Of a stretch of 21,378 nucleotides of DNA, positions 2,801 through 21,378 are shown piece by piece. Under the pieces are notes generated by a model. It saw nothing but the letters and a program-made list of their open reading frames with translations, made no database searches and was not told the origin of the DNA. The DNA comes from Chloroflexota bacterium (GTDB lineage Bacteria; Chloroflexota; Dehalococcoidia; UBA3495), in assembly GCA_002716645.1 (NCBI GenBank), contig PBBR01000027.1:1-21378 (forward strand), written 5' to 3'. Within the stretch, counting starts at the first letter, position 1. Each line of letters starts with the position of its first letter. A program made the position numbers and the translations under genes.

Positions 2801-2847
2801 TTGCCACCAGCACAAATAAAGATTTGATTAAGGGATTTTGTTGGCGC

Positions 2848-4116
2848 ATGAAGGACCAGAAATCTAACAGTCAAAAACGCAACTATGGATGGGTAGTTCT
2901 AGGATTAATATTTGGAAACCTAGTTGTTGAGGGTGGAATTCGGAACAGTGCTCCGGTATTTTTGCCAGCCTTGAGGTCTAGTTTTGGGCAAAGTTCTGCA
3001 CTAACGGCAGCGGTATTTTCGATGTCAGGAGTAGTTGGTGGATTTATTGCTCCGGTTTTAGGACGTATTCTTGATAAAATAGGGCCCCGCTACCTGTTTC
3101 CTATTGCTGGAGTCATTATATTGCTGGGTTTCCTAGCCAGCAGTATGGTCAGTAACATATGGCAATTATTTATTTTTTATAGTGTCCTAGCTACGCTTGG
3201 TCATACTACGATTGGAGCATTTTCTGCAACAGCTGTATTGGCGCCTTGGTTCCCGAGAAATAAAGGCGTTATATTGGGGATTGCTGACTCTGGTAATCCT
3301 GCCGGACAGGCGATATTTACGCCATTATCACAACTTATTATCACCAATTATGGATGGAGATCAGGGTTTCAGGTATTAGGTGTTTTGTTCTTCTTGTTGA
3401 CTGCCCCGTTGAACCTTTTGTTCCAAAGGAGACCGCCAAATCCAAACGTAGATGAAGAGAATGGCTTCTCTGAGGATATAGTAGCAACTCCAGAGGATTC
3501 TGTTCCTGATATGTCAGTAAACGGAGGACAAGGAATAAAAGTTACTAGAGAGCCTGCTGTCTGGTTTTTGCTCATATCAAGGGCTACTGGAACTATTTCT
3601 CATCAAATGACAAATCTGCACATAATATCCTTTTTCATATTTGCAGGATATGGAGGTATACAGGCTGCTACTGCCCTGGGTATAGCTGGGCTGTTTGGTA
3701 TTGGTGCACGTCCCGTATTCGGAATACTTTCTGACAGGATAGGTAGGGAAATAATTTTCAGCGTTGCCATGGGTATGACTTTTATGTCGATCCTGGTAGT
3801 TTTATTGTTTACGGAAGGGGCGAACTTGTGGGCGTTGATTTTGTTCGTGGCCCTTACCGGTTTAAGCGATGGTCTGAACGGGCTTTTATTGGGTGCTAAG
3901 GCTGCAGATATTTATCCTTCAAATGTACTAGGTTCAGTTTCTGGAATGGTAGATGTCGGTAGAGGCATAGGCTGGGCAACCGGAGGTATCCTTACTGGTT
4001 TCATGTTCGATCAATACGGGGATTATAATTTAGCGTATTCTGTGGCTGCGGTTTTGGTCTTGCTCTCAATTGCTTCCGCATGGGTAGTGCGATTCGTGGA
4101 GCCAAAAACTTTTTAG
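2848..4116 (+). CDS. MFS transporter (paralogue A)
   Basis: This is a 422-residue major facilitator superfamily carrier with about 12 membrane helices in two halves separated by a polar loop (about residues 190-225). The loop between helices 2 and 3 carries GRILDKIGPRYLFP, and the matching loop of the second half carries GILSDRIGRE, the standard MFS gating motif. APWFPRNKGVILGIADSG resembles monocarboxylate or oxalate/formate antiporter-like carriers. I chose the ATG at 2848 over the TTG at 2824 because MKDQKSNSQKRNYG then lines up with MDQKKNTKPKRNYG, the start of the paralogue at 8107-9411; about two thirds of residues match by eye over the whole length. The substrate is unknown, probably an organic anion. 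The gene converges on the nitronate monooxygenase gene with 64 bases between and no clear terminator hairpin. Confidence 0.9.
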   Translation: MKDQKSNSQKRNYGWVVLGLIFGNLVVEGGIRNSAPVFLPALRSSFGQSSALTAAVFSMSGVVGGFIAPVLGRILDKIGPRYLFPIAGVIILLGFLASSMVSNIWQLFIFYSVLATLGHTTIGAFSATAVLAPWFPRNKGVILGIADSGNPAGQAIFTPLSQLIITNYGWRSGFQVLGVLFFLLTAPLNLLFQRRPPNPNVDEENGFSEDIVATPEDSVPDMSVNGGQGIKVTREPAVWFLLISRATGTISHQMTNLHIISFFIFAGYGGIQAATALGIAGLFGIGARPVFGILSDRIGREIIFSVAMGMTFMSILVVLLFTEGANLWALILFVALTGLSDGLNGLLLGAKAADIYPSNVLGSVSGMVDVGRGIGWATGGILTGFMFDQYGDYNLAYSVAAVLVLLSIASAWVVRFVEPKTF

Positions 4117-8106: not shown

Positions 8107-9411
8107 CTAGGTGTAATCTTCTGAATTTGGCTCCATAATTTTGACTGTCCACACGGCTACGGTTGACAGTAGTACCAATATAGCTGCAATCCAGTAAGCC
8201 AAATCATAGTTGCCGTTGATGTCAAACAGCAATCCCGTTAGTACGCCTCCCACCGCTATTCCGATACTTCTGCCTACATCTACGACACCCATAACAGACC
8301 CTAAAACATTGGACGGATAAATATCTGCTGCTTTAGCTCCTAGAAGTAATCCACTTAGCCCATCGCTCAGACCTGTTAGAGCGACAAATATTATCAAAGC
8401 CCATAAATTGGCGCCCCCAGTAAACAATATAACGACTAGTATTGCCGTGAATGTGAGACCCATAGCGATGGAGAAAACTACCTCTCTGCCAATCTTATCT
8501 GATAGTATCCCAAATGCTGGCCTTGCTCCTATACCGAATAGACCTGCAACACCAATGGCTGCAGCTGACTGCATTTCGCCATAGCCCGCTAGAACGAAAA
8601 ACGCGATGATGTGCAAATTTGTCATTTGGTTGGAAATAGATGATGTTGCCCGCGACGCTAATAGCATCCAGACAGCTGGTTCCTTTAATGCATTAAATCG
8701 GTACACATCATTCGATATATCTGCTGACTGGTGACTTGTATCTATGGTTGATTGCGTATTGGCTTCATTACTGTCAATTTCGAGAATATCTTCAGAATTG
8801 GATAACCCAGGATCTACAATTGGGGGACGTCTTTGTAGCAGAAAGTTTAAGGGCGCTGCTATTAGGAAAAAGACTACTCCAAAGATTCGAAATCCCGCTC
8901 GCCATCCATAATTTGTGACCGCGAGTTGAGCTAGAGGTGTAATAATAGCCTGGCCTGTGGGATTACCAGAATCAGCGATTCCGAGCATGACTCCTTTCGA
9001 TCTGGGGAACCAGGGAGCTAACACCGCTGTAACGGAGAACGAGCCAATAGTGGTATGACCTAGGGCAGATATTAGGCTATAAAATATAAATAATTGCCAC
9101 ATATGGCTGACCATACTGCTAGCCCACCATCCGACAAGAATGACTATACCTGCTAGAGGGAACATGTATTTGGGACCGATTGTATCCAGAAGTTTTCCGA
9201 GTATAGGAGCTGCGAATCCTCCAAAAAGTCCGGCAGCTGAGAATATAGCCGCTGTAATAGCTGCACTTCCCCCGAATCCTTGTCTGAGGGCTGGCAGGAA
9301 TACGGGTTGGCAGTTTTTGACCCCACCTTCTACGATGAGGTTTCCAAAAGATAGGGCTAAAATGACCAATCCATAATTTCTTTTGGGCTTTGTGTTTTTC
9401 TTTTGATCCAT
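8107..9411 (-). CDS. MFS transporter (paralogue B)
   Basis: This is a 434-residue major facilitator carrier with about 12 membrane helices, closely related to the protein at 2848-4116 (about two thirds of residues identical by eye, higher in the second half). Shared signature stretches include VLAPWFPRSKGVMLGIADSG, MTNLHIIAFFVLAGYG, IGARPAFGILSDKIGRE and GLLLGAKAADIYPSNVLGSV. The cytoplasmic central loop (about residues 195-245) is the main point of divergence and is longer and richer in Asp, Asn, Ser and Thr here. The RRPP motif ending helix 6 is kept in both. The two copies probably arose by gene duplication and now bracket the nitronate monooxygenase and nitroreductase block in opposite orientations. 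Substrate is unknown; an organic anion is likely from the family resemblance. Confidence 0.9.
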   Translation of the reverse strand: MDQKKNTKPKRNYGLVILALSFGNLIVEGGVKNCQPVFLPALRQGFGGSAAITAAIFSAAGLFGGFAAPILGKLLDTIGPKYMFPLAGIVILVGWWASSMVSHMWQLFIFYSLISALGHTTIGSFSVTAVLAPWFPRSKGVMLGIADSGNPTGQAIITPLAQLAVTNYGWRAGFRIFGVVFFLIAAPLNFLLQRRPPIVDPGLSNSEDILEIDSNEANTQSTIDTSHQSADISNDVYRFNALKEPAVWMLLASRATSSISNQMTNLHIIAFFVLAGYGEMQSAAAIGVAGLFGIGARPAFGILSDKIGREVVFSIAMGLTFTAILVVILFTGGANLWALIIFVALTGLSDGLSGLLLGAKAADIYPSNVLGSVMGVVDVGRSIGIAVGGVLTGLLFDINGNYDLAYWIAAILVLLSTVAVWTVKIMEPNSEDYT

Positions 9412-9637: not shown

Positions 9638-11038
9638 ATGTTTCTTAAAATAGCTACACTTCGCGAGCGCCTTCATGCTGTTATTTTGAATAAAGGTGAA
9701 CAGGGTTACGTGACCGAAGGTTTGGATAAAGAACTAGATTCTCTCCCTGATAGTTATGACAGACTAATTGAATTCGCGGAAGGCCTAGCTTCCTTATCAG
9801 TAAGATCAGATTGGAAATACGTGGAACCTAATGATCTTGACGGTATTTGGGCAGAAGCATCCCCCAATAGACCGGTAGGACAAATAGCAGATGTTAATTT
9901 TGACGATAGTACAAGAAGGGTAGAGGCGGCGTTTCTTGGTTCAATCTGTGGATGTATTTTAGGTAAGCCACTAGAGGCACGATTTACAGGTCACGAGATT
10001 AGAAAAGCGCTACAGCAAATTGGCGAATGGCCTTTGAATCAGTATGTATCCAAACAAATTGAAAGTGTCCTACCACGTGTCCACCGATCATTTCCTGAGA
10101 CGGCTAGAGAATACATCCGCTATGTGGCTCCCGATGATGATATTAACTATACGATTATGGGTATGCTTATTCTTGAAAGATTTGGTCCTGATTTTACTCA
10201 TGCGAATATGAAGGAACTATGGCTGCATCACTTGCCTATCAGTACCACTTTTGGGCCTGAGAGAACGCTGTTGCTGCAGTCTGGAGCAGAGTCCTTTGAT
10301 ATTCAGCACAGAGATTATTTTGCTGATAAGGGTGGTGTAGGATTGAGTGGTGTCTTGGTTCCAGATGAATCAGAAAGCTTCTTAAATGTTTTCAATGACA
10401 TTATGAACCCTGGAGCGGAACTTTGTGGCGCTGCCATCCGAGCGGATGCGTATGGATACGCTTGTCCAGGAAATCCGGAAATGGCAGCAAGTTTGGCATG
10501 GAAAGACGCTAGCTTTACGCATAAAGGGACTGGCATTTATGGGACTATGTTTATTGCGGCGGTTATTGCATGTGCACAAGTTATGCATGATCGTATGGAC
10601 ATAATTGAAACCGCTTTAAGATTCGTTCCCCGTAGGAGTCGTTTCTATGAACGTGTATCTGCTTCTTTGAAAGACGTTAGGGAGTCAGGTGACTGGGAAG
10701 AAGCTTATGCCAAGATCAATAATAAATTTGGGGAATATGGACATTGTCGTATATATCAAGAGATAGGAATGCTTATTAATACTTTTAGTTTTGCTGAAAA
10801 TGTCGGTCATGGAATATGTATTCAAGTCAGTCAGGGTGCGGACACGGATAGTTTTGGCGCTACGTCAGGGTCTATTCTAGGTGCGTATTTTGGGCCAGGT
10901 CATTTAGAATCTAGATGGCTTGAATTGTTTAACGATGATATACATTCTGGTCTGGCATGGTTCTTCGAAAGGTCTTTATCAAAGTTAGGAATTAGGATGG
11001 GTAGATTGCCAAGTACAGTTAAGGAATGGCTTGAATGA
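9638..11038 (+). CDS. ADP-ribosylglycohydrolase-family protein, enlarged
   Basis: This 466-residue protein contains the ADP-ribosylglycohydrolase (ADPRH/DraG) fold. Members use two Mg ions to remove ADP-ribose from proteins or to split related N- and O-glycosidic bonds. The first glycine-rich motif is GSICGCILGKPLEA (101-114). The metal motif APDDDINYT (164-172) stands in place of the usual TDDT, and the last metal motif is GADTDSFGATSGSILG (400-415). NPGAELCGAAIRADAYGYA (257-275) and HKGTGIYGTMFIAA (295-308) complete the core. About 90 extra residues precede the first motif, and the whole is longer than the usual 300-350. Variants with this kind of change often act on small substrates rather than proteins. 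GGGGAG nine bases before ATG 9638 supports the start. It is divergent from MFS paralogue B. Confidence 0.85.
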   Translation: MFLKIATLRERLHAVILNKGEQGYVTEGLDKELDSLPDSYDRLIEFAEGLASLSVRSDWKYVEPNDLDGIWAEASPNRPVGQIADVNFDDSTRRVEAAFLGSICGCILGKPLEARFTGHEIRKALQQIGEWPLNQYVSKQIESVLPRVHRSFPETAREYIRYVAPDDDINYTIMGMLILERFGPDFTHANMKELWLHHLPISTTFGPERTLLLQSGAESFDIQHRDYFADKGGVGLSGVLVPDESESFLNVFNDIMNPGAELCGAAIRADAYGYACPGNPEMAASLAWKDASFTHKGTGIYGTMFIAAVIACAQVMHDRMDIIETALRFVPRRSRFYERVSASLKDVRESGDWEEAYAKINNKFGEYGHCRIYQEIGMLINTFSFAENVGHGICIQVSQGADTDSFGATSGSILGAYFGPGHLESRWLELFNDDIHSGLAWFFERSLSKLGIRMGRLPSTVKEWLE

Positions 11039-13960: not shown

Positions 13961-14067
13961 AGAAAAAGAGTTTTAGGCTGCACTGTCAAAGTTCTGCTTG
14001 ATATATTGGTGTTTAGCGATTATAAACAACGTGACAATGATCAATATACAAGCGTTTGAGAGATGCG

Positions 14068-14508
14068 ATGCCTACGATACGAGAAGCACGAGTTAGTAAA
14101 GGGCTGACCCAGTTTCAACTTGCAGACATTATGAAAGTCACTATTAATCAAGTATCAGCCTGGGAACGCGGTATTAATCAACCAAGGTTAGCGAATGTTA
14201 AGAAGTTATGTTTTATCTTAGATCTCAGTATTGATAATCTTGATTTTCCGATGTCGCAAGAAGATGTTGATATATTATCTAGGATAAAAACAAACCAGTC
14301 TGAATTGGTGTTACACAGGGTCAATGCTATGATTGCTCAGTCAACGTTTGCCGAGGACGACTCACACAAAGACCTTGAGATTGTCAGTACCAACGACGAT
14401 AAACCGACAACCCGTCGTCGGAGGATGGATTTTACCAATCCATCTTACGAAGATACTTGGAATGTTAGATTCGTTGACCCTTACCGGATAGACCACGAGG
14501 CATCATAA
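14068..14508 (+). CDS. XRE-family helix-turn-helix transcriptional regulator
   Basis: This small protein of 146 residues has an N-terminal Cro/C1-type HTH at about 3-60: IREARVSKGLTQFQLADIM, then VTINQVSAWERGINQPRLAN as the recognition half and LCFILDLSIDNLDF as the last helix. The C-terminal 85 residues match no family I recognise; they are polar, with an acidic stretch (about 92-112), TTRRRR (114-119) and an aromatic tail (WNVRFVDPYRIDHEAS). There is no sensor domain, so it could respond through the tail or act by level alone. I took ATG 14068; a TTG at 14056 would add four residues. It is divergent from the GMC gene and ends only five bases from the convergent aldolase gene. Control of the GMC gene through the GGTAT/ATACC palindromes is inference. 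Confidence 0.85.
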   Translation: MPTIREARVSKGLTQFQLADIMKVTINQVSAWERGINQPRLANVKKLCFILDLSIDNLDFPMSQEDVDILSRIKTNQSELVLHRVNAMIAQSTFAEDDSHKDLEIVSTNDDKPTTRRRRMDFTNPSYEDTWNVRFVDPYRIDHEAS

Positions 14509-17630: not shown

Positions 17631-18830
17631 CTAACGAGTTGCAAGGACTTTTAAGACTCTATTTAGGATTTCGTTGCCGACATCATATTTGGTGAGTATA
17701 GGAAGATGTTCCGCTTGTAGCTGGTCATCTATAATGACAACTTTATTGGTATCTTTCCCAAAACCGCTATCCGGGTCAGTTATATCATTTGCGACTATTA
17801 GATCTAGCGATTTCCTGCCAATCTTTTCAGTAGCGTTGCTGACAAGATTTTCACTCTCGGCTGAGAATCCCACTTTTACAAAATTTCCCGTCGCTTTTTC
17901 CAATATATCTTCGGTCTTGGTCAGATCGATTGTCAGTCCAGAGTTAGATTTTTTTATCTTTTGCTCTGCAGACGTTTTGGGCCTATAGTCAGCTACCGCT
18001 GCAGACATTATTAGGGCGTCACTATCAATCACTTCTGACAGGACTAGACTGCACATCTCAGCAGCTGTTGTGACGTTCTTCACTGTTATAGAAGGAGGGT
18101 CCGGTAGTGTCGTTGGCGCAGTGATCAATATCACTTCTGCTCCGCGATCCCTAGCAGCCTCGGCAATAGCGTAACCCATCTTGCCTGAAGAGTTGTTCGT
18201 TATTACTCTTACAGGGTCTATAGGTTCTTGGGTTCCCCCAGCACTTATCACGATCTTCTTACCAGATAGGTCTCCCCTTTTCCCCAAAGCTGCTGCAATA
18301 TGCCCGACAAGCTGGGTAGGGTCTACGAGACGGCCTTTACCTGATAGACCAGACGCGAGATAACCCTGGTCAGGTCCAACGATTACTACTCCTCGTCGCT
18401 CAAGAATTTGCAGATTGTCTTGCGTCGCTGGATGACTGTACATATTGCCATCCATAGCTGGGGCGATGAGTAGAGGGGCTTCGGTGGCTACTACAGTAGT
18501 AGTTAGTGGATCATCGGCCATTCCCCATGCTAACTTTGCGATACAATTTACGGTTGCGGGAACTATAGTTACTATATCGGCCCTGCGAGCTAGTGCGACG
18601 TGTTCATTGCTAAACTCAGAATCTAAATCATAGAGGTCTGTAATCACGTCCCTGTGCGTAATACTTCTGAATGCTAGCGGTGTAATGAATTGTGTAGCGC
18701 CGTAGGTTAATATAGTGTCTACTAGCGCCCCTGCTTGAGTAAGTTTACTGGCCAGATCAATAGCCTTGTAGCTTGCTATGCTGCCAGTTACCCCAAGTAC
18801 TATATGTTTATTTACTAGTGGTCCGCTCAT
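17631..18830 (-). CDS. coaBC: Bifunctional phosphopantothenoylcysteine decarboxylase/phosphopantothenate-cysteine ligase
   Basis: CoaBC catalyses two steps of coenzyme A synthesis: ligation of cysteine to 4'-phosphopantothenate and decarboxylation to 4'-phosphopantetheine. The flavoprotein CoaC half (1-185) has VLGVTGSIASYKA (11-23), the active-site histidine H77 in NEHVALARRAD, PATVNCIAKLAWGMADD (91-107) and PAMDGNMYSHPATQ (124-137). The CoaB half begins at VISAGGTQEPIDPVRVI (194-210), with NNSSGKMG (212-219) and later SAAVADYRPK. Length, 399, is standard. Two CoaC positions differ from E. coli: Asp127 in place of the PAMN asparagine, and Ser160 (LASGLSGKGRL) in place of the flap cysteine. 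The start overlaps the end of coaX by 23 bases, with no clear Shine-Dalgarno, so translation is probably coupled. Confidence 0.95.
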   Translation of the reverse strand: MSGPLVNKHIVLGVTGSIASYKAIDLASKLTQAGALVDTILTYGATQFITPLAFRSITHRDVITDLYDLDSEFSNEHVALARRADIVTIVPATVNCIAKLAWGMADDPLTTTVVATEAPLLIAPAMDGNMYSHPATQDNLQILERRGVVIVGPDQGYLASGLSGKGRLVDPTQLVGHIAAALGKRGDLSGKKIVISAGGTQEPIDPVRVITNNSSGKMGYAIAEAARDRGAEVILITAPTTLPDPPSITVKNVTTAAEMCSLVLSEVIDSDALIMSAAVADYRPKTSAEQKIKKSNSGLTIDLTKTEDILEKATGNFVKVGFSAESENLVSNATEKIGRKSLDLIVANDITDPDSGFGKDTNKVVIIDDQLQAEHLPILTKYDVGNEILNRVLKVLATR

Positions 18831-19617
18831 GGTTATTCACTGATTTAACTTGTGATTTATTGAGATTGTAGATAGTTTTCAGACCCAACAGAGTTAAGTC
18901 TCTATTTATCTCGTCAAATATTGAGGTGTGCTGTGAGACAACATTTATCAGTCCGCCTGTTCCTATAACTTGAGCATCTTGTCCTACCTCAGATTTAAAT
19001 CGTTCTACCATAGTCGTTACTAACCCAGTATAACCTAGTACTAATCCTGATTGTAATGCTGTTGTAGTACTTCTTCCTATAGCTGAGTCCGGAGCGATTA
19101 ACTCTACGCGGCGGAGCTGGGACGTATTAAAGAATAGCGAGTCAGCGGCTAAATTTATACCTGGTGCGATAGCGCCGCCTAGGTATTCTTTGTTCTTTGA
19201 TATTGCGTCGAAAACAGTGGCTGTACCCAAATCAACGACTATAAGTGGGGCACCGTAAAGATCAATTGCAGCAACAGCGTCAGCTATTCTATCAGCGCCT
19301 ACATCTCGTGGATTATCGTATAAAATTGGTAATCCCGTACGGACTCCTGCTGATACAATCAGAGGCGATACGTCAAATAAAGTGTTACATACTTCGGTAA
19401 AAACGACTGTTAGTGGAGGGACTACACTACACATGCAGATCGAATCAATATCCGAAGGAGTAACGCCCTTTAGTATAAGAGCATTTGTTACCATGACTCC
19501 GTATTCGTCGGCAAGCCTTCTGGTATCAGTCGCTACTCTAAGAGTAGTCACCAACGTGGAATCATCGAAGACTCCCATTGTCACGACGGTATTCCCTATG
19601 TCCATTGCTAATAGCAT
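18808..19617 (-). CDS. coaX: Type III pantothenate kinase
   Basis: CoaX phosphorylates pantothenate, the first step of coenzyme A synthesis, and unlike CoaA is not feedback-inhibited by CoA. The 269-residue length is typical. Visible motifs of the ASKHA fold are MDIGNTVVTMGVF (5-17) for the phosphate loop with D6, CSVVPPL (63-69), NPRDVGADRIADAVAA (102-117) with catalytic D109, VVDLGTATVFDAIS (127-140) and LGGAIAPGINLA (146-157). The start could be ATG 19617 or the in-frame ATG four codons on; family members usually begin MLLAIDIGNT, so the first is used. A strong promoter lies just upstream at 19656-19684. It is transcribed with coaBC, placing three of the CoA steps in one operon. Confidence 0.95.
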   Translation of the reverse strand: MLLAMDIGNTVVTMGVFDDSTLVTTLRVATDTRRLADEYGVMVTNALILKGVTPSDIDSICMCSVVPPLTVVFTEVCNTLFDVSPLIVSAGVRTGLPILYDNPRDVGADRIADAVAAIDLYGAPLIVVDLGTATVFDAISKNKEYLGGAIAPGINLAADSLFFNTSQLRRVELIAPDSAIGRSTTTALQSGLVLGYTGLVTTMVERFKSEVGQDAQVIGTGGLINVVSQHTSIFDEINRDLTLLGLKTIYNLNKSQVKSVNNHERTTSK

Positions 19618-19797: not shown

Positions 19798-21078
19798 ATG
19801 GCAGATATGGAACTAGTTCAAACGGTTAAGCAAGGTAGAGATGCTGTCGCCAAGTGGCGTGAGGATCACCCTGGTGAGATATTAGATCTCTATCAATGCT
19901 TTATGAGTCACGTCCGAATCCCAATGGTAGATCTTCGGGGCGCTGATATGCGAGACGGGGATTTCATGGGCGCTATGATGAGACGAGCAAATTTGGCCGG
20001 AAGCTATCTAAATCCAGCTCATCTCTATCGAAGTGACTTGCGGGAGGCAGACTTAAGTAAAACTCTATTAAACAGTGCTAACTTACGCGGAGCAGATCTG
20101 AGAGGGGCAAACCTGGAAGGTGCCGATGCCGATCAGGCTATCTTCTCTGATGCTAATCTTGAAGGTGCTAATTTGTCTGGAGCAAATTTCTCCCGAGTAA
20201 ATCTAACTGGGGCTAATCTTACAAATGCAAACTTAACGGGTGCTAACTTTAACGGGGCAGCTTTAAAGCGAGCTAATCTTAGTGGTGCTATTATGGACGG
20301 AGCAGATCTGTACGAAGCAGTATTGAATGATGTTCCGACTGTAGGCACTAATTTCGCGGGTTGCATTATTGGCTACACAGTTTTTCAAAACTGCGATATG
20401 AGTGAAGCTGAAGGTTTGAACTCAGTTCGTCACGATGCTCCGAGTACTTTAGGAATGGATACATTTTTCCGATCTTCTGGTAATTTGCCCGCAGAGTTTC
20501 TGCAAGGTGTTGGATCTCCTTCTGCAGCAATGGATTACCAGGCCTCTATAGGCAGTGCAGAGGGTCTTACTTCGGAATATTATATATCTTGTACCGCGTC
20601 GGATATTTCGTTTGCTGAAAAAATGCGAGATGATCTTAGAGCCCACGGGGTTAGGGTGTGGGTGTTCGCAGAAAATTTCAGGGGTAATGCCCTGGTAGAT
20701 CGCAGAAGTACATCTGAAGAAGAAGAAATCGAGCGATGGATAAGGCACTACGACAAGCTTATTGTTGTATGCTCACAACCTAGTTTTGAAAATGAAATTG
20801 TTCGAACTGATCTAACTCAGGCAAAAGATTTACAAACGTTGCGAGATGAATGGTTAGTATATTTAGTAGACCCTGACGGTTCATTGGATCAACCAAGCTC
20901 TAGGGCAGCACGGAATCTTAAGGCCGAACATGTTGTTTTTGATTTGCAGGGACAAAGTCAAGGATCAGATACTTATAACTCTGAGGTGTTAAGATTGGCA
21001 GAAGGTCTGAAATCTCAACAACCTTCGAAGGCAGGAATTCCCGCATTCGAGGGTGGCGGAAACAACTTGCAGTTGTAG
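19798..21078 (+). CDS. Pentapeptide-repeat protein with C-terminal TIR domain
   Basis: This is a 426-residue protein with three parts. Residues 1-43 form a helical cap (VAKWREDHPGEILDLYQ). Residues 44-180 are a pentapeptide-repeat right-handed beta helix of about 27 A(N/D)LxG-like units. A linker at about 200-240 (VRHDAPSTLGMDTFFRS, then PAEFLQGVG) matches a segment I know from other pentapeptide-TIR proteins. A TIR domain at about 259-400 opens with EYYISCTASDISFAEKMRDD, followed by LRAHGVRVWVFAENF and YDKLIVVCSQPSF. Bacterial TIR domains often cleave NAD or make cyclic ADP-ribose signals in anti-phage defence. Here the strand-helix segment with the catalytic glutamate reads SFENEIVRTDLTQA (329-342) without the usual S-x-W-x3-E pattern, so activity is uncertain. 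ATG 19798 is chosen over TTG 19744 because GGAG lies eight bases upstream. The gene stands alone. Confidence 0.88.
   Translation: MADMELVQTVKQGRDAVAKWREDHPGEILDLYQCFMSHVRIPMVDLRGADMRDGDFMGAMMRRANLAGSYLNPAHLYRSDLREADLSKTLLNSANLRGADLRGANLEGADADQAIFSDANLEGANLSGANFSRVNLTGANLTNANLTGANFNGAALKRANLSGAIMDGADLYEAVLNDVPTVGTNFAGCIIGYTVFQNCDMSEAEGLNSVRHDAPSTLGMDTFFRSSGNLPAEFLQGVGSPSAAMDYQASIGSAEGLTSEYYISCTASDISFAEKMRDDLRAHGVRVWVFAENFRGNALVDRRSTSEEEEIERWIRHYDKLIVVCSQPSFENEIVRTDLTQAKDLQTLRDEWLVYLVDPDGSLDQPSSRAARNLKAEHVVFDLQGQSQGSDTYNSEVLRLAEGLKSQQPSKAGIPAFEGGGNNLQL
19927..20337 (+). repeat. Pentapeptide-repeat coding region
   Basis: About 27 tandem 15-base units encode A(N/D)LxG-type pentapeptides within the TIR fusion gene. 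The best-preserved part is residues 93-165, where the units follow one another without a break. Codons vary between units (GCTAATCTT, GCAAACTTA, GCTAACTTA), so the array is kept by protein selection and is not a recent DNA expansion. Confidence 0.9.
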
Positions 21079-21104
21079 TCATTAATTGATGTTGTTAGTT
21101 ATAT

Positions 21105-21137
21105 AAAAAGACCGTGGGCATAGCCCACGGTCTTTTT
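21105..21137. terminator. Strong bidirectional intrinsic terminator
   Basis: A perfect 15-base inverted repeat (21105-21119 and 21123-21137) with a 3-base loop forms a GC-rich core flanked by A5 and T5 tracts, so it works as a classic terminator on both strands. It lies between the convergent pentapeptide-TIR gene and the partial minus-strand gene. Confidence 0.92.
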
Positions 21138-21162
21138 ATATATTCCGATATTCAGCGTAAGC

Positions 21163-21378
21163 TTAGATGTAATCGCTATCCTGATCCATCATCGCTACGT
21201 TGTCAGTGCTTAGAGCAAGTGCCCTTTCCATCTCTGCTTTGAAATCTTCCATCATGTCCTCGGTGATCTCTCCACCAGATGCCTTGGCTTTCTCCTTGAA
21301 CTGATCGAAGGCCCATTCGCTGGCATCGCCGTGAGGCATTGAGCTGAAGAAGTCACGCTCGAACTGAGGTAGTTCACC
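21163..21378 (-). CDS. Unrecognised protein, C-terminal 71 residues (5' end outside window)
   Basis: A minus-strand frame is open from the window edge to a TAA at 21165-21163 and is likely the end of a larger gene. The residues visible begin GELPQFERDFFSSMPHGDAS and end ERALALSTDNVAMMDQDSDYI after an acidic helical middle (EITEDMMEDFKAEM). I do not recognise the family. It is coding by base composition: GC is near 50 percent, above its neighbours, and codons such as TTC, GAG, AAG, ATC and GGT dominate, as in strongly expressed genes. A perfect terminator follows 26 bases downstream. The tail is rich in Asp, Glu and Met and has no membrane segment, so a soluble, abundant protein is likely. Confidence 0.7.
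   Translation of the reverse strand, partial: GELPQFERDFFSSMPHGDASEWAFDQFKEKAKASGGEITEDMMEDFKAEMERALALSTDNVAMMDQDSDYI

What the first reader, a model, noticed from the sequence alone, without database searches (positions are those of the whole stretch)
19798..21078. Stand-alone pentapeptide-repeat/TIR fusion as a candidate immune or signalling protein
A helical cap, about 27 pentapeptide repeats and a C-terminal TIR domain are joined by the linker (VRHDAPSTLGMDTFF) seen in other pentapeptide-TIR proteins. TIR domains in bacteria act as NAD-consuming defence effectors in several systems (Thoeris, TIR-STING, pAgo-TIR). The pentapeptide helix could sense or bind a partner, but no partner gene lies beside it: it is divergent from coaX, with a terminator behind it. 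The function of this architecture is, as far as I know, not settled.
Basis: partly seen in the sequence, partly recalled or inferred. Interest (0 to 1): 0.7.

Follow-up and report, generated by a model that had tools for sequence, protein, structure and literature searches.

The report
Core TIR protein, catalytic glutamate replaced
This bacterial gene joins a pentapeptide-repeat rod to a TIR domain, is found in nearly all genomes examined of its family and mostly among metabolic genes, and has an aspartate where NAD-cutting TIR domains have their key glutamate, so it likely does everyday scaffolding work rather than the phage defence first suspected.

Summary
ORF 19798-21078 (426 aa) is a helical cap, a pentapeptide rod, the HxxPS linker and a C-terminal TIR fold, divergent from coaX and followed by a hairpin. 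The immune reading is not supported. The orthologue is in 46 of 50 genomes of one family; the four without it also lack coaX, while a restriction-type marker is in 28 of 50. Neighbours are mostly metabolic and pairwise identities track those of coaX (r=0.97). At the NADase catalytic Glu position the family has Asp in 120 of 120 homologues and 41 of 41 genome-derived rows, plus a 7-residue BB-loop insertion; Glu is in 120 of 120 canonical pentapeptide-TIRs and 11 of 12 outgroups. One outgroup relative in the same gene slot, though inverted, keeps Glu and lacks the insertion, so both changes look derived. Best reading: an ancestral Glu-type TIR turned into a constitutive, probably non-NADase adaptor. 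Activity is untested. A new variant of a known kind.

The parts
19798..21078 (+). Pentapeptide-repeat/TIR gene, 426 aa
19786..19789 (+). Shine-Dalgarno-like GGAG before the ATG at 19798
   Evidence: read directly
19798..19869 (+). N-terminal helical cap, residues 1-24
   Evidence: helices 4-11 and 14-23 in both models; 12 of 24 positions at least 95% conserved in 41 rows
19870..20412 (+). Pentapeptide rod, residues 25-205, net charge -9
20413..20571 (+). Linker, residues 206-258, with RHDAPSTxGxD motif and three short helices
20572..21021 (+). TIR domain, residues 259-408
20671..20754 (+). BB loop and helix-B region, residues 292-319: about 7 residues longer than in relatives, strongly conserved, not confidently modelled (298-314 pLDDT under 50)
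20809..20811 (+). GAT codon of Asp338, at the position of the TIR NADase catalytic Glu
21100..21142 (.). Perfect 20-nt inverted repeat with T/A runs: probable bidirectional terminator
18808..19617 (-). coaX, type III pantothenate kinase, divergent neighbour
   Evidence: PF03309 2.8e-67
17631..18830 (-). coaBC (dfp) flavoprotein
   Evidence: PF04127 1.3e-67
21163..21378 (-). C-terminal end of the convergent neighbour (cluster 1, about 427 aa, weak 4Fe-4S signature), cut by the window end
   Evidence: clusters with genes in 32 of 42 loci; Fer4 hits below cut-off in the L002 member

Best explanation
The gene encodes a pentapeptide-repeat rod fused to a TIR domain that has Asp338 in place of the catalytic Glu of NADase TIRs, and it likely works as a constitutive, non-NADase TIR adaptor in a housekeeping role. 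Shown: domain order and fold match, Asp at the Glu position in all members examined, a lineage-specific BB-loop insertion, presence in 46 of 50 genomes of one family, mostly metabolic neighbours, and an outgroup relative in the same gene slot that keeps Glu. Inferred: an ancestral Glu-type TIR lost fast NAD cleavage through Glu-to-Asp and rebuilt its BB-loop/helix-B/helix-C surface; the rod would hold a cellular partner, and TIR-TIR contacts, perhaps with the second pentapeptide-TIR paralogue of the same genomes, would build the assembly. Partner and pathway are not identified.
For: Asp338: 120 of 120 homologues against Glu in 120 of 120 canonical pentapeptide-TIRs; Asp in 41 of 41 rows (window plus loci L001-L040); Glu in 11 of 12 outgroup rows, Gln in the other. 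The loci were found with family motifs that do not include this position. A profile of eight such TIRs finds AbTIR among its best solved matches (6e-10 and 1.4e-9), and its WxxxE Glu falls in the same column. Prevalence: orthologue 46 of 50, coaX 43 of 50, N6_Mtase 28 of 50 (46 against 28, Fisher p=6.5e-5). coaX or pyrB in 38 of 42 loci, the FeS-type gene in 32 of 42 (several loci are cut short). Pairwise identities correlate with coaX, coaBC, pyrB, der and gpsA at r=0.97, 0.88, 0.81, 0.88, 0.92. Outgroup L081 is sister to the family (support 99/96), keeps Glu without the insertion and lies between der-pyrB-hotdog and FeS-TPP. Published passages: Glu is needed for TIR NADase activity (PMC7075850), and Glu-to-Ala TIRs lose NAD hydrolysis but still assemble (PMC7188309).
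Against: Glu to Asp is conservative, so residual or altered chemistry is possible; strict invariance of Asp338 and of many charged pocket-side residues is more than a pure scaffold needs. Glu alone does not prove an NADase: PMC7075850 finds it in over 70% of all TIRs, so the ancestral activity is also inferred. The Glu-bearing relative in the same slot rests on one genome, and its gene is inverted relative to its neighbours. One of 20 variable neighbours scanned is a helicase matching defence models (BrxHI 7.2e-114), next to the gene in L004. Residues 298-314 are not modelled confidently. Loss of the Trp of WxxxE says little: SPARTA TIRs in the same alignment lack it. dS is saturated, so dN/dS is not usable. 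Core status does not exclude a core defence role. No expression or binding data.
Confidence: 0.5

Rival explanations
1. The TIR domain is still an enzyme or nucleotide-binding sensor with a remodelled pocket: Asp338 and the conserved acidic/arginine BB-loop and helix-B residues handle a different or slower reaction, or bind a nucleotide without cutting it.
For: Asp338 is invariant, not drifting. With pocket elements as named in PMC7075850 (betaA, AA loop, BB loop, alphaB, alphaC), 18 of 63 pocket positions are at least 97.5% conserved against 10 of 87 elsewhere in the TIR, p=0.011. The close paralogue group B1 has Leu there (57 of 58), so an acid can be lost but was kept here.
Against: The nucleophile position needs an exact reach; two literature searches listed no Asp-type TIR NADase. 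The conserved loop is low-confidence in both models. The element boundaries are mine, read from the model.
Confidence: 0.27
2. It is a stand-alone NAD-consuming defence effector, triggered when the rod binds a phage component.
Against: Asp at the catalytic position, no PADLOC match, 46 of 50 genomes and mostly metabolic neighbours, only one partial relative among 80 viral-contig stretches, no plasmid record covering 80% of the query among 212 matching records.
Confidence: 0.12
3. The rod is a DNA mimic that modulates gyrase like MfpA/Qnr, and the TIR domain serves only as a dimerisation handle.
Confidence: 0.06

Closest known systems
Canonical pentapeptide-TIR proteins (e.g. L041 genes, P0121-P0240)
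   Same: N-terminal cap, rod, HxxPS linker and C-terminal TIR in the same order
   Different: They keep Trp and Glu (119 and 120 of 120), lack the BB insertion, and in L041 occur as three tandem copies; the window family has Asp, the insertion and a mostly fixed single locus
AbTIR NAD(+) hydrolase and SPARTA TIR-APAZ
   Same: TIR fold; profile match and, for SPARTA, structural match
   Different: Catalytic Glu present there; no APAZ or pAgo match found here
MyD88-type TIR adaptors
   Different: No death domain, different domain of life, assembly untested here
HetL and other pentapeptide proteins
   Different: No TIR domain in HetL
Thoeris ThsB
   Same: TIR domain
   Different: No ThsB model match; no ThsA-type match among 8 window proteins scanned

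Membership tests
TIR domain superfamily | TIR fold / Pfam TIR model over cut-off | tested here: met
NADase TIR enzymes | Catalytic Glu in helix C (WxxxE region) | tested here: not met
   Asp in 120 of 120 homologues and 41 of 41 rows
NADase TIR enzymes | NAD+ cleavage activity | not testable with these tools
   needs an enzyme assay
Pentapeptide-repeat proteins | Pentapeptide Pfam match and quadrilateral rod | tested here: met
Thoeris (ThsB) | Match to ThsB models and adjacent ThsA | tested here: not met
   0 PADLOC families at E<=1 for the protein; no ThsA-type match among 8 window proteins scanned, coaX and coaBC included
SPARTA / pAgo-TIR | TIR-APAZ fusion with adjacent short pAgo | tested here: not met
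   no such match in the protein or in 8 window proteins scanned
TIR-STING / CBASS effector | STING or SAVED sensor domain | tested here: not met
   only pentapeptide and TIR families over cut-off
MyD88-like TIR adaptor | Signal-dependent TIR-TIR assembly | not testable with these tools
   needs biochemistry; fold similarity only
Defence-island gene | Patchy presence among genomes | tested here: not met
   46 of 50 genomes, the 4 others also without coaX
Defence-island gene | Defence genes beside it | tested here: inconclusive
   metabolic neighbours in 38 of 42 loci; 1 of 20 variable neighbours scanned, of 42 listed, matches defence models

The most novel reading that the evidence does not exclude
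An immune-type TIR enzyme was domesticated once, at one chromosomal slot, into a core housekeeping component of the SAR202-type lineage: Glu-to-Asp plus an acidic BB-loop insertion created a new TIR pocket function, and together with a second, Glu-less pentapeptide-TIR paralogue it forms a bacterial, non-immune TIR signalling pair.
Probability: 0.25. Interest if true: 0.78.

Novelty: new variant of a known kind. Interest (0 to 1): 0.52.

Why it matters
Bacterial TIR domains are mostly discussed as NAD-consuming immune effectors or virulence factors. A TIR kept in a core, apparently vertically inherited gene with Asp frozen at the catalytic position would show a TIR moved from NAD cleavage to everyday cell biology in a widespread ocean lineage, and it gives a natural before/after pair (L081 with Glu, the family with Asp) in one gene slot to test what that position does.

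Tried and rejected
Defence-effector reading: rejected as best explanation on prevalence, neighbours and the Asp. Viral origin: the viral-contig scan gave 80 pattern stretches (which may be a cap) and 1 relative, 43% over residues 27-191, rod only. Plasmid spread: 212 records match, none over 80% of the query. Phage records, metagenome contigs and E. coli genomes were not searched.

Operon partner: a FlK-like hotdog gene is the nearest clustered upstream neighbour in 13 of the 40 rows (39 loci and the window; L017 and L041 not included), at 53-68 bp on the same strand in six (L031, L034, L035, L037, L039, L040); an enolase-like gene lies 58 bp upstream in two (L030, L033). Neither is general, so no partner is claimed.

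dN/dS between window and L001: dS saturated or undefined, not used. A first pocket definition (21 of 55 against 7 of 95, p=6e-6) was drawn after seeing the conservation; the one after PMC7075850 (18 of 63 against 10 of 87, p=0.011) is reported. Trp loss as a sign of inactivity: dropped, since SPARTA TIRs lack it. A first comparison with canonical TIRs missed 71 of 240 rows through a strict text pattern; redone with all 240 plus 120 B rows. One outgroup row without a TIR (L083:472-1008) was left out of the count of 12. A PDB search with the single TIR sequence gave no TIR among its 32 hits. The class search with the window protein found matches in 53 of 294 genomes, mostly rod only, and a close orthologue only in the centre genome G001; a class search with L081 found 6 of 393; the order searches found 20 of 147 and 54 of 250, of which 49 are in the 50-genome family. 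Literature searches listed no paper that I could see to treat this architecture in this lineage; absence in print beyond those searches is not claimed.

Full report

Kin. The 120 best of 7884 database hits mostly share the domain set and a length near 425 aa, at 55-99% identity. In genome contigs 41 loci were found: 40 titled Dehalococcoidia, Chloroflexi/Chloroflexota or SAR202 cluster at 51-88% identity, and one Anaerolineales locus (L041) at 31%. The patterns used are motifs typical of the family, so this is no census of distant kin. That the window is of the SAR202-type lineage is inferred from these relatives; no genome is held for it.

Prevalence. The family of G001 (the genome of L001, the closest relative) gave 50 genomes when up to 80 were asked for. 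Of these, 49 match at E<=1e-25; in 46 the best match is a clear orthologue (3.9e-132 or better), in 3 (G318, G324, G329) only a paralogue, and G316 has none. All four also lack coaX, found in 43 of 50, so incomplete genomes would suffice as reason; completeness is not told. PF02384, a restriction-type marker chosen by me, is in 28 of 50. Over the order, 54 of 250 genomes match L081 at E<=1e-40, 49 of them in that family.

Place. Clustering ORFs of 42 loci (41 plus window) puts coaX in 22, pyrB in 16, one or the other in 38, and the 4Fe-4S-like gene of cluster 1 in 32. Some missing cases are loci cut by contig ends. Two upstream arrangements exist (coaBC-coaX, or gpsA-plsY-der-pyrB, often with a hotdog gene). 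Of 42 variable neighbours of at least 190 aa within four genes, 20 were scanned against PADLOC at E<=1e-5: 19 have no match, and one in L004, a locus without coaX or pyrB, matches BrxHI and other helicase models. Pairwise identity of the focal protein follows that of the neighbours (r 0.81-0.97), which fits vertical descent.

The catalytic position. On one alignment of 361 tails, position 338 is Asp in 120 of 120 family members, Glu in 120 of 120 canonical pentapeptide-TIRs, Leu in 57 of 58 close paralogues (B1, one gap), and mostly Phe, Leu, Ser or Val in 62 further ones (B2). In the window plus L001-L040 it is Asp in 41 of 41. Twelve outgroup proteins have Glu in 11 and Gln in 1, and none has the insertion. 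The canonical set comes from one query (L041), so it represents one branch. A profile of eight TIRs finds AbTIR chains best (6e-10 and 1.4e-9), with the WxxxE Glu in this column. Passages of PMC7075850 and PMC7188309 state that this Glu is needed for NADase activity and that Glu-to-Ala TIRs can still assemble; I read passages only. PMC7075850 also finds the Glu in over 70% of all TIRs, so Glu does not by itself prove NADase activity.

Polarity of change. In a tree of 50 tails the family is one clade (100/99), with L081 next (99/96) and L084 after it (95/77). L081 keeps Glu and lacks the insertion. It sits between der-pyrB-hotdog and FeS-TPP genes, the slot seen in the pyrB-type loci, 16 of 42, but its gene has the opposite strand relative to these neighbours, so a local inversion, or less likely a separate insertion, must be assumed. 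On this reading Glu-to-Asp and the insertion happened on the branch to the family. This rests on one genome (its family holds one).

Surface. Strongly conserved TIR positions gather in the elements that line the NAD pocket of other TIRs (18 of 63 against 10 of 87, p=0.011), above all residues 292-319, of which both models leave a large part at low confidence. This suits a loop that orders on binding a partner or ligand; it also leaves room for altered chemistry, hence the second explanation at 0.27.

Second paralogue. 45 of 50 genomes have a second match with an open frame of 363-546 aa (counted by hand; two, G327 and G324, have a stop inside the match, many matches cover only part of the query, and not each was placed in the B clade). 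The six such proteins read in full (L052-L056, L061, of 13 loci fetched) have TIR regions without the WxxxE motif. All six follow a co-oriented gene at 14-222 bp; Pfam names it luciferase-like monooxygenase in the two tested, and in L052-L056 it resembles that family by tblastn.

Verdict. The finding is real, its immune reading is not supported, and the better reading is a domesticated, probably non-NADase TIR adaptor. Function, partner and activity remain untested.

Noticed in passing
L052-L056 and L061 (B paralogue): Second pentapeptide-TIR paralogue with a TIR region lacking WxxxE, directly downstream of a co-oriented luciferase-like monooxygenase gene in all six loci read (Pfam in L055 and L061, tblastn in L052-L056).
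   Followed up: partly
G343, G338, G012 (two), G335, G319: Open frames of 237-286 aa matching only the cap and rod (within residues 1-203), possibly a third, TIR-less member of the set.
   Followed up: no
L041:1392-4896: Three tandem canonical pentapeptide-TIR genes in an Anaerolineales genome with 30 TIR_2 matches.
   Followed up: partly
L004:6459-9746: 1095-aa helicase gene matching BrxHI (7.2e-114) and other defence helicase models, next to the focal gene; the only such match among the 20 neighbours scanned.
   Followed up: partly
window 9638-11038: ADP-ribosylglycohydrolase family gene (PF03747, 4.8e-31), an ADP-ribose-related enzyme about 9 kb from the TIR gene.
   Followed up: partly
window 2824-4116 and 8107-9411: Two similar transporter-like genes on opposite strands about 4 kb apart; the first is MFS by Pfam, the second was judged by eye from its translation.
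   Followed up: no
window 14056-14508: Small HTH_3 regulator with a charged tail; weak PADLOC matches, mostly to regulator models.
   Followed up: no
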